Below are positions 13,213 to 18,711 of a stretch of 64,000 nucleotides of DNA, in pieces. The DNA is from Solirubrobacteraceae bacterium (GTDB lineage: Bacteria > Actinomycetota > Thermoleophilia > Solirubrobacterales > Solirubrobacteraceae): NCBI GenBank assembly GCA_029263125.1, contig JAJCYD010000007.1:124001-188000 (forward strand). Direction: 5' to 3'. Within the stretch, counting starts at the first letter, position 1. Each line of letters starts with the position of its first letter. The translations under genes were made by a program, and so were the position numbers. The notes beneath the pieces are model-generated. The model saw only the letters and a program-made list of their open reading frames with translations. It made no database searches and had not been told where the DNA came from.

Positions 13213-15012
13213 ATGACGAAGGACGATGTCTCATCCGACGGTATCCCTGGGTGCGTGTCAAGCCATCAACGGCGACGAGGCGTCGGCGCCGCGCTGTCGG
13301 TGCTCGTCTCGCTGGCGCTCGCGCTGGTGCTCGTCCCGTCTGCGCAGGCCGTCAGCTGGCCCAACGAGCAGGCGATGGTCGACAGCCCGACCGGCCGCCA
13401 GACCTTCGTGGCTCCGCCGACGCAGGGCACACGGTGGGAAAGGGAAGCTCTGATCGCCGCACACGGCGAGTACTTCAGGAGCCGCGGTTTCGGCAACGTC
13501 CTCACGTGGGGTGCCAAGAAGTTGAACTTCGATCCGGGCACGACGGGGCGCTGGGCAGGATGTGGCAGCTCGGGTGAGCAGATCCCGGGCGCGTGTCCCA
13601 ACGGCGACACGCTGCACCTCGGAAGAGTCGGTGACGCGCTCACGTCCAGCAGGCTGCTGACGGTGATCGAGACGGACGGCGCGTTCATCGCGCTGGCGTG
13701 CGGCAACTTCTCCGAGCGCACGGTGACGGGTGACACACCAACGATCAAGGGCGTGAAGTTCGAAGACCTCAACGGCGATGGCAATCGTGATCCCGGCGAA
13801 CCGGGTCGCGGCGGGTGGACGATCGAGCTGCTCAATGCTGGTCAGGTCATCGCGACCACCGTCACCACCCAGACCGGTGATTACAGCTTTGACCTGGATG
13901 CCAACGCCCTCCCGATCACCTCGGAGAACTTCGGGCTGCGAGAGGTCATGAAGGCGGGATGGGTGCAGAGCCGCGCGCCGGGCACCGTCCGAGTGCCGTT
14001 CGGGTCCGGTAACGACATGTTCGCCGGCAACGACTTTGGCAACTACCGCCCGGCCAGCATCGTCGGCACGAAGTACGACGACCAGAACATCAACGGCGCC
14101 CGCGATGCGGGCGAGCCTGGGCTCGAGGGCTGGAAGATCACCCTGAGCAATGGGAACACGCAGACGACCGGTCCTGACGGGGCCTACCGGTTCGATGGTC
14201 TCAAGCCGGACGAGTTCACGGTCTCGGAGACCCAGCAGGCCCACTACCGACAGACCGCGCCCGCGACCGGCGAGGGGACGCACACCGTCACGTTGCAAAG
14301 CGGCCAGACCTCCGATGCGCTGCTGTTCGGCAACACCTGCCTGGGATCGTCGAGCATCACCGTGACCGACATCTCGACCGGCGGGCAGGTCGACGGTGCG
14401 CAGATGCGCTTGGAGGAGATCGACGTGCCGGGCATACTCGACAACGAACCCGCGCTGCCGCGAACCACCACCCAGGGCAGCTTCGACGATCTGCTGCCCG
14501 GCCGCTATCGGATCACCGTGTTCCTGCCCGAGGGTGTGTACTCCGCTGATCCGGATACACGCGTCGTCGACGGGCGCTGGGCGACCGTGAAGGAGATCGT
14601 CGTCTCCGCGTGCGAGGACACCGGCCTGAACGTCAAGGCCTTCACGGCCAGCAACGGCAAGGTCACCGGCGGCATGAAGAACGTCCCCGGCGGCTTCGCC
14701 ACGGCAGGCTTTCAGTTCCAGACGGGCCCGAAGGGCGACGCGCGCGGCACGCTGCAGTACAACGACCACGCTGACGACGGTCCCAAGCTGCACACCAAGG
14801 ACATCGCCGCGATCTACGTGAGCGACGATCGCCGTGAGGCCTACGTCTGGGGCTTCATCGAGTATGAAGGCGAGTCCTCCCTGTTTCGCCTGCACCTCGT
14901 AGACGAGGGCGAGCCCGGCACGCTGGACCGCTTCGAGCTCGACGTGCTCGACCGCTATCGGGCCGGCCATGACCAGACGATCATCGGCGGCAACGTCCAG
15001 ATCCACAAGTAG
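13213..15012 (+). CDS. Secreted SdrD-B/prealbumin-like repeat protein
   Basis: A 599-residue exported protein. A signal peptide covers residues 1-46 (basic QRRR, hydrophobic stretch, AQA-VS). Two SdrD B-type Ig-like domains begin IKGVKFEDLNGDGNRDPGEP (about 177) and IVGTKYDDQNINGARDAGEP (about 290); the DxNxDGxxDxGE motif is a calcium site. A third carboxypeptidase-like beta domain spans about 385-475. The C-terminal 120 residues resemble a domain found at the end of other secreted actinobacterial proteins. No sortase signal or membrane anchor is visible. The ATG has a GGAGG site 8 bases upstream. Likely structural or adhesive. Confidence 0.75.
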   Translation: MTKDDVSSDGIPGCVSSHQRRRGVGAALSVLVSLALALVLVPSAQAVSWPNEQAMVDSPTGRQTFVAPPTQGTRWEREALIAAHGEYFRSRGFGNVLTWGAKKLNFDPGTTGRWAGCGSSGEQIPGACPNGDTLHLGRVGDALTSSRLLTVIETDGAFIALACGNFSERTVTGDTPTIKGVKFEDLNGDGNRDPGEPGRGGWTIELLNAGQVIATTVTTQTGDYSFDLDANALPITSENFGLREVMKAGWVQSRAPGTVRVPFGSGNDMFAGNDFGNYRPASIVGTKYDDQNINGARDAGEPGLEGWKITLSNGNTQTTGPDGAYRFDGLKPDEFTVSETQQAHYRQTAPATGEGTHTVTLQSGQTSDALLFGNTCLGSSSITVTDISTGGQVDGAQMRLEEIDVPGILDNEPALPRTTTQGSFDDLLPGRYRITVFLPEGVYSADPDTRVVDGRWATVKEIVVSACEDTGLNVKAFTASNGKVTGGMKNVPGGFATAGFQFQTGPKGDARGTLQYNDHADDGPKLHTKDIAAIYVSDDRREAYVWGFIEYEGESSLFRLHLVDEGEPGTLDRFELDVLDRYRAGHDQTIIGGNVQIHK

Positions 15013-17033: not shown

Positions 17034-17339
17034 TCAGCGACCCGCCGTCACCGTCCGGCGCGCCCACCCTCGGCGCGGCGCGGCGCGCCGCCGGCGCGCG
17101 CCGCCACCGCGCAGCTGCCGCGCGCGCACCGCGAGCAGCGCCACGAGCTCGGCCGTCGGGTGAAACGGATCGGCGATCGTTGAGTCGTCCTCGATCCGCA
17201 GCGCCGCGACGATGACGCCGTCCACGCCGGCGATCAGCAGCGCGCCTCCGTCGGGCACCGTCGAGGAGTCCAGGGCCGCCAGGCGCTCGAGTGCGGCGCT
17301 GTCATCGGGAAACGCCGGTCGGATCGTCACCTCGCTCAT
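17034..17339 (-). CDS. Small conserved-type protein, function unknown
   Basis: A 101-residue protein. The first 75 residues (TIRPAFPDDSAALERLAALD ... IADPFHPTAELVALLAVRAR) look genuinely coded and recall the start of GNAT acyltransferases, but no acetyl-CoA-binding motif follows. The last 25 residues are nearly all Arg, Gly and Ala and may be read-through of noncoding or frameshifted sequence. The ATG overlaps the stop of the upstream sigma/amidotransferase reading as ATGA, which supports the start and suggests coupling. Confidence 0.6.
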   Translation of the reverse strand: MSEVTIRPAFPDDSAALERLAALDSSTVPDGGALLIAGVDGVIVAALRIEDDSTIADPFHPTAELVALLAVRARQLRGGGARRRRAAPRRGWARRTVTAGR

Positions 17340-18466
17340 GCCGCCGCCCTCCGCTTGGTCGCGTCGACGAGCGCCTCGGCGATCCGGTCGCCCGGGCCGT
17401 CGCGCCCGACCTCCGGGTGCCATTGCAGCCCGAGCGCCAGGTGGCGGTCGGTGCGCTCGATCGTCTCGATCAGGCCGTCGTGCGAGGTCGCGTCCACGCG
17501 CAGTGGCGCCCGAGGCGCCGGACCGCCTGGTGGTGCTGGCTGTGGACCTCTGCGCGGCGGCCGAGCAGCGCGCGGATCGTGCTGCCGCTGTGCGTCTCGA
17601 CGCGATGGCGCGCCGCGTCGTGTGACTCGCCGGCCGCGCCGTCCGCGACGACGTCCTGAAACAGGCTCCCTCCGGAGGCGATGTTCAGCAGCTGATGGCC
17701 GCGGCAGACGCCGACGATCGGCAGGTCGAGCGCGAGCGCGCCGCGCACGACGGCGAGATCGGCGCGGTCTCGCTCGAGGTCGGGATCTCCGCGCAGCGAA
17801 CGCGGCTGCTCGCCGTACATCGCGGAGTGCACGTCGCGGACGGCCCCGGTGAGCATGAGCCCGTCGGCGAGCGCCAGCTCGCGTTCGCTCGGAGGGCTCG
17901 TGAGCACCCGCGCTCGTGCGCCGGCATCGGCGAGCCAGCTGACGTATGGCGCCGGCGACTCGTCGCGGGCGAGCAGCAGGACGAGCGGCAGCGAGTCGGC
18001 GCGCGCCGCACGGTAAGCGTTGACGAACGCCGCGCGAGCCCGAGCGACCCGTTTGCGCGCGGCCCCATCGCTGACGTCGAGCAGCCGCGCGATCTCGGCG
18101 TGGGCGAGGCCGCCCTCGAAGCGCAGCAGCAGGACGAAGCGCTCGTGCGCGCCGAGTGTCAACAGCGCCTCGCGTGCCGCGTCGGGCTCGGCGACGTCGG
18201 TGGCTCCCGCGAGCTCGGGCCCGTCGTCCAGCGCGCTGACCGGCCGGCGGACGCGGCGGCGCACCTCGTCGACAACGAGGTTGGAGGCCGTGCGGTGCAG
18301 CCAAGCGCGCTGGCGGTCGTCGTCGAGGTCGCGGGAGACGCTGCCAGGCGCGGACGAACGCCTCCTGGCACACGTCCTGCGCGCCGTGGACGTCACCGCC
18401 GAGCATGCGCGCGAGGCGGCGAGTGAGCCCGTCCTGCTCGTCTCCTATCAGCGTTTCGAAGTCCAT
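17336..18466 (-). pseudogene. ECF-like sigma factor fused to class I glutamine amidotransferase (peptidase C26), two frameshifts
   Basis: Three successive frames make one protein. It starts MDFETLIGDEQDGLTRRLAR with sigma region 2 (GAQDVCQEAFVRAWQRLP), shifts near 18335 into RDLDDDRQRAWLHRTASNLV, and continues through sigma region 4 (HAEIARLLDVSDGAARKRV). Without a break it then enters a PuuD-like amidotransferase with nucleophile GVCRGHQLLN. A second shift near 17510 leads to HDGLIETIERTDRHLALGLQ and the catalytic WHPE. Sigma-to-amidotransferase fusion lies within a single open frame, so it is not produced by the shifts. Both shifts are in GC-rich runs and may be sequence errors. If intact, it might couple transcription to breakdown of a gamma-glutamyl compound. 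Confidence 0.7.
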
Positions 18467-18711
18467 CTCACCACATGAAACGCTACGCGTGCCCCGGACC
18501 GGACATCAAGCGCACCGATCGCCGCGAACCGGCGGCTCAGCGAAACGGCCGAGAACGGCGTGCGCTGGAGGCGCCCCGCCTTCGGGCGTCGCTCGAGGTC
18601 AGGACACGGGAAGCATGGGCGGGAGTCGGACCGCGTAGGCCGCCCCCGCAGCGGGCAGGCTGTGAGCCGTCGCGCTCATGGATCACACCAGTCAGCCGAA
18701 GGAGCTCTGTG

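What the first reader, a model, noticed from the sequence alone, without database searches (positions are those of the whole stretch)
17336..18466. Sigma factor fused to a class I glutamine amidotransferase
Sigma region 4 and the PuuD-like amidotransferase are joined within one uninterrupted frame, so the fusion is real even though the reading frame shifts twice (near 18335 and 17510). Such a protein would combine transcription initiation with gamma-glutamyl hydrolysis. Catalytic Cys (GVCRGHQ) and His-Glu (WHPE) are both retained.
Basis: partly seen in the sequence, partly recalled or inferred. Interest (0 to 1): 0.6.

Follow-up and report, generated by a model that had tools for sequence, protein, structure and literature searches.

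The report
Sigma factor fused to amidotransferase enzyme
In one lineage of soil bacteria a gene-switch protein (an ECF sigma factor) is joined to a PuuD-like enzyme and sits behind a conserved promoter that suggests it switches on its own gene and a few others; the copy in this window has two frame breaks, but intact copies exist in many related genomes.

Summary
The minus-strand gene at 18466-17336 encodes an ECF sigma factor (sigma2, sigma4) followed by a PuuD-like class I amidotransferase (Peptidase_C26). Sigma4 and the amidotransferase share one open frame. Two frame breaks (about 18345 and 17507) cut off the first half of sigma2 and the end carrying WHPE. The fusion is not an artefact: 23 other genomes, all in the same order (Solirubrobacterales, Conexibacter included), carry the same domain order; none was found in the rest of the class or phylum sampled. 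The breaks were seen in no relative and are the only ones in the window: a recent pseudogene or a local sequence error, undecided. Nearly every fusion gene, this one included, is preceded by TGTCCGGT-N15-CGTCT about 8-13 bases before its start: an ECF-type promoter, very probably autoregulated. In relatives the same promoter recurs before orthologous genes (alpha/beta hydrolase, OsmC-like protein, cupin, second amidotransferase, small protein). Best reading: a self-contained regulator in which the amidotransferase takes the place of an anti-sigma factor, working like ECF41 but with a different sensor. I found no published description of this extension in the papers I could search. Signal, activity and direction of control are inferred, not shown.

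The parts
18498..18505 (-). -35 element TGTCCGGT of the conserved ECF-type promoter
   Evidence: Same element before nearly all fusion genes; best site in the window, 21.4 bits against 10.1 for the next (the site was itself one of the 25 training sites)
18477..18482 (-). -10 element CGTTTC, 15 bases after the -35 element
18344..18466 (-). Start codon (ATG) and first half of sigma region 2, first frame
   Evidence: Pfam Sigma70_r2; frame model
18343..18347 (-). First frame break (first frame to middle frame)
   Evidence: Frame model; absent from the homologues
17512..18343 (-). Rest of sigma2, sigma region 4 and most of the PuuD-like amidotransferase with GVCRGHQ, in one uninterrupted frame
   Evidence: Sigma70_r4_2 E 1e-10, Peptidase_C26 E 1e-30
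17501..17512 (-). Second frame break (back to the first frame)
17336..17501 (-). End of the amidotransferase with WHPE, and the stop codon
   Evidence: Peptidase_C26 positions 187-219
17034..17339 (-). Small GNAT-like gene (about 101 aa) whose start overlaps the fusion's stop (ATGA); related genes adjoin the fusion in several relatives
   Evidence: Sequence; neighbours; no Pfam match, so 'GNAT-like' is by eye only

Best explanation
It is a frame-broken copy of a lineage-specific regulator: an ECF sigma factor whose C-terminal extension is a PuuD-like amidotransferase. In intact relatives the amidotransferase most likely acts as a built-in cytoplasmic sensor in place of an anti-sigma factor: it binds, and perhaps cleaves, a gamma-glutamyl or related small compound, and the change of shape frees or blocks sigma2/sigma4. 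Active sigma then transcribes its own gene from TGTCCGGT-N15-CGTCT and a handful of other genes. Shown by sequence: the fusion, its conservation, the promoter and its recurrence before other genes. Inferred: that this sigma uses this promoter, that the amidotransferase senses, what it senses, and the direction of control.
For: Same domain order in 23 other genomes and 11 of 11 intact members tested have Sigma70_r2, Sigma70_r4_2 and Peptidase_C26. The fused amidotransferases form one clade, SH-aLRT 99. Model of an intact homologue pLDDT 83.5, pTM 0.69, nearest solved folds PuuD 6vtv, Lin1909 3fij, SpuA. Promoter before nearly every fusion gene. Motif plus start codon: 33 matches in 16 carriers against 8 for the reversed control, 27 against 36 in 85 non-carriers; 42 against 10 in ten carriers with a relaxed form. 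The motif recurs before orthologous genes in different genomes; in G398, searched after the motif was set, it again precedes the alpha/beta hydrolase and the small protein. In G339 the cupin lies directly behind the fusion. No anti-sigma gene recurs beside it. ECF41 is a tested precedent for a fused controlling domain with a tiny target set (PMC3426412).
Against: No experiment. No ligand known. Two relatives lack the catalytic His and Glu, so hydrolysis is not always needed. Some orthologues of the predicted targets lack the motif, and the target list was partly assembled by looking at hits. In the window's own genome only the fusion's promoter stands out; the relaxed motif gives 13 hits against 21 in the control. 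The contact between the two parts was not examined. The window copy is broken.
Confidence: 0.6

Rival explanations
1. The amidotransferase is a working metabolic enzyme tethered to a sigma factor; the fusion keeps enzyme and gene control in step, and the enzyme does not control sigma.
For: Cys kept in every copy that covers it, His-Glu in all but two; fold and active-site motifs as in PuuD and SpuA; a second amidotransferase among the predicted targets.
Against: G014 and G339 lost His and Glu but keep the fusion and promoter; known ECF extensions are mostly regulatory (PMC8999054).
Confidence: 0.2
2. In this genome the gene is a pseudogene in decay: both breaks are real and the regulator is being lost.
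For: Both breaks are in one gene and no other gene in 64 kb has a frame switch without a stop; the six other same-genus genomes searched showed only amidotransferase matches, no fusion. Compatible with the best explanation for the intact relatives.
Against: Promoter, codon usage and motifs are kept on both sides of the breaks; both breaks lie in GC-rich runs, where sequence errors are common; no reads were available.
Confidence: 0.5
3. The breaks are local sequence or assembly errors and the gene is intact in the organism.
For: Breaks absent from all homologues, in GC-rich runs; conserved promoter and motifs.
Against: No other break in the window, so errors would have to cluster in one gene.
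Confidence: 0.5
4. Two separate neighbouring genes appear fused only because of the frame breaks.
For: Two breaks in the gene.
Against: Neither break lies between sigma4 and the amidotransferase; homologues carry both in one frame.
Confidence: 0.02

Closest known systems
ECF41 sigma factors (SigJ, Ecf41Bli; SnoaL-like C-terminal extension)
   Same: ECF sigma with a fused C-terminal domain, no anti-sigma gene recurring beside it, conserved own promoter, small target set (PMC3426412, PMC8999054)
   Different: The extension is an amidotransferase, not SnoaL-like; -35 is TGTCCGGT rather than TGTCACA
Other ECF groups with extensions (ECF42 TPR, ECF57 WD40, ECF238 Cys-rich, ECF56/205/294/295 SnoaL-like)
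   Same: General plan of a sigma factor with a controlling extension (PMC8999054)
   Different: The review sections read (3.5, tables) name no amidotransferase extension
PuuD / SpuA / Lin1909 class I amidotransferases (Peptidase_C26)
   Same: Fold and active-site motifs; Foldseek E 2.5e-17 (6vtv), 1.4e-16 (3fij)
   Different: Free-standing enzymes; fused copy L038 scores 82.8 bits against the PuuD equivalog cut-off of 266; the fused domains form their own clade
SigL, SigE, SigW (ECF sigma factors of known structure)
   Same: Sigma2-sigma4 part; best PDB profile matches for that half
   Different: No amidotransferase domain

Membership tests
ECF sigma factors | Sigma regions 2 and 4, without region 3 | tested here: met
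   Sigma70_r2 and Sigma70_r4_2 in 11 of 11 intact members; sigma70-ECF TIGR02937 62.7 bits against cut-off 42.9 for L038
Peptidase_C26 / class I amidotransferase | Pfam match over most of the domain | tested here: met
   L038 145.8 bits, positions 26-219 of 219; 11 of 11 members match; window fragment 107.5 bits
Peptidase_C26 / class I amidotransferase | Cys-His-Glu catalytic triad | tested here: met
   Cys in every copy that covers it; His-Glu in all but G014 and G339. In the window the residues lie in different frames
PuuD equivalog (NF008471) | Score above the curated cut-off (266 bits) | tested here: not met
   82.8 bits for L038
ECF41 | SnoaL-like C-terminal domain | tested here: not met
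   No SnoaL match in any of 11 members
ECF41 | TGTCACA -35 promoter motif | tested here: not met
   TGTCCGGT/TGTCCGCT in nearly all; only L039 has TGTCACAA
Named ECF groups of Casas-Pastor et al. 2021 | Assignment by the group's own model | not testable with these tools
   The paper is not held and the group models are not on hand
Gamma-glutamyl hydrolase (activity) | Hydrolysis of gamma-glutamyl bonds | not testable with these tools
   Needs an enzyme assay

The most novel reading that the evidence does not exclude
A sigma factor gated by its own enzyme reaction: the gamma-glutamyl-thioester formed on the cysteine of the fused amidotransferase (or its turnover) is the on/off state that controls promoter binding, so the cell measures a metabolite by consuming it.
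Probability: 0.2. Interest if true: 0.85.

Novelty: new variant of a known kind. Interest (0 to 1): 0.55.

Why it matters
ECF sigma factors are a main route of bacterial signalling. A fused enzyme as the sensor would add a new type of input, from a cytoplasmic metabolite to transcription in one polypeptide and without an anti-sigma factor. The conserved promoter and predicted targets make the idea directly testable in cultured Conexibacter, and the compact design (sensor, sigma, defined promoter) could serve as a biosensor part.

Tried and rejected
Artefact of two joined genes: rejected, fusions in one frame exist in many genomes. General indel noise of the assembly: not supported, no other gene in the window shows a frame break. 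Programmed frameshifting: judged unlikely, homologues need no shift. The single-sequence scan of genome contigs found nothing; the alignment did. Relaxed motif in the window's own genome: 13 hits against 21 in the reversed control, so no further targets are claimed there. Motif hits before EamA transporter and chorismate synthase genes were set aside by judgement: the matching stretch, spacer included, is alike between genomes and lies under long open frames, as expected of coding sequence. The second promoter hit near the fusion in G031 precedes a short stub resembling the fusion's 5' end, not a new target; the one in G047 looks the same. Paper searches for ECF sigma with Peptidase C26, with PuuD, in Conexibacter or in Solirubrobacter gave nothing relevant; most subscription papers are not held.

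Full report
What is there. On the minus strand at 18466-17336 lies a gene that begins as an ECF sigma factor and ends as a class I amidotransferase of the PuuD type. The 376-aa start-to-stop ORF is open, but only its first 40-odd and last 50-odd residues are in the right frame. The middle, with the rest of sigma2, sigma4 and most of the amidotransferase, is in the frame of ORF 17470-18396, without interruption between the two domains. A codon-usage frame model finds the two switches by itself. They cancel modulo 3, and no other gene in the 64-kb window has a switch that lacks a nearby stop codon.

The fusion is real. A search of 100 relatives gives 15 genomes with the same order in one frame, 46-64% identical; three of these are cut off by contig ends or runs of N. 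A profile search of 399 genomes of the class adds eight, one of them with a run of N in the sigma part, and the phylum sample of 396 adds none outside the order; elsewhere only the amidotransferase half matches. All 11 members tested have Sigma70_r2, Sigma70_r4_2 and Peptidase_C26. In a tree of 100 amidotransferase domains the 18 fused ones form one clade (SH-aLRT 99), joined only by L050, whose contig begins inside the gene. Of the six other same-genus genomes, none showed the fusion; two of them are under 80% complete.

Structure and active site. AlphaFold on the intact L038 protein (11-sequence alignment) gives pLDDT 83.5 and pTM 0.69; sigma4's last helix runs almost directly into the first strand of the amidotransferase. 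The nearest solved folds are PuuD, Lin1909 and SpuA. The catalytic Cys is kept in every copy that covers it; the His-Glu pair is kept in all but G014 (WKPQ) and G339 (WQPQ). So the active site is under selection in most, but catalysis is not needed in all.

Promoter. Upstream of nearly every fusion gene, this one included, stands TGTCCGGT or TGTCCGCT (first base variable), exactly 15 bases, then CGTCT or a near form, and the start codon usually 8-13 bases after the CGTC. L039 departs from it (TGTCACAA-N15-CGTT). In the window the fusion's site scores 21.4 bits and the next best 10.1; it was one of the 25 training sites. Motif plus start codon is enriched in carriers (33 matches, 8 in the reversed control) and not in non-carriers (27 and 36) (totals added by hand from its table). 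The 33 include alternative starts; they are 25 distinct sites.

Predicted targets. The motif lies just before the likely start of the following: a membrane-anchored alpha/beta hydrolase in G027, G044, G057 and G398; an OsmC-like protein in G027 and G044; a cupin in G035 and G049; a second amidotransferase in G035 and G049; the GNAT-like neighbour in G035; and, some 30 bases upstream, a small protein ending in GFFGREHG in G027, G044 and G398. G398 was searched after the motif had been set, though its hydrolase was found with the relaxed form. In G339 the cupin lies directly behind the fusion. The list was partly assembled by looking at hits, and some orthologues lack the motif, so single members are less certain than the recurrence as a whole. 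OsmC-like proteins often act on organic peroxides (general knowledge), which hints at oxidative or electrophile stress; this is a guess. In the window's own genome no target beyond the gene itself and its overlapping neighbour stands out.

Neighbourhood. In the window the small GNAT-like gene overlaps the fusion's stop (ATGA). Related genes adjoin the fusion in several genomes; in Conexibacter the fusion is followed by moaC. No anti-sigma gene was seen to recur.

How it probably works. By analogy with ECF41, where a fused C-terminal domain controls sigma and the target set is tiny (PMC3426412), I propose that the amidotransferase is the sensor. Membership of ECF41 is excluded (no SnoaL domain, other -35). 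The sections of PMC8999054 that I read list ECF groups with extensions and name none with an amidotransferase. The 2021 classification paper was not available to me, so an earlier description there is not excluded.

This copy. Whether the window's gene is a recent pseudogene or a local sequence error is open. Both breaks in one gene, and absence from sister genomes, lean to loss; breaks in GC-rich runs with everything else kept lean to error. The two rival entries on this point are each given 0.5 and concern this copy only; they do not compete with the explanation of the intact fusion.

Noticed in passing
L050 and L212:3-776 (G322, record isolate RSA11): An amidotransferase of the same clade preceded by a TPR-like stretch (judged by eye), at the edge of a contig; possibly a second fusion partner.
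   Followed up: partly
L136, L146, L040:37-288 (G031): A 52-aa stub resembling the 5' end of the fusion gene, with its own copy of the promoter, upstream of the intact fusion; looks like a decayed duplicate.
   Followed up: partly
L124, L143, L233: A small protein of about 70 aa ending in GFFGREHG, conserved in three genomes of genus g22, without a Pfam match for the one tested.
   Followed up: partly
window 17034-17339: Small GNAT-like protein without a Pfam match; related genes adjoin the fusion in several relatives.
   Followed up: partly
window 13213-15012: Predicted secreted protein with repeats of the SdrD_B type (for example KYDDQNINGARDAGEPGLEGW), by eye.
   Followed up: no
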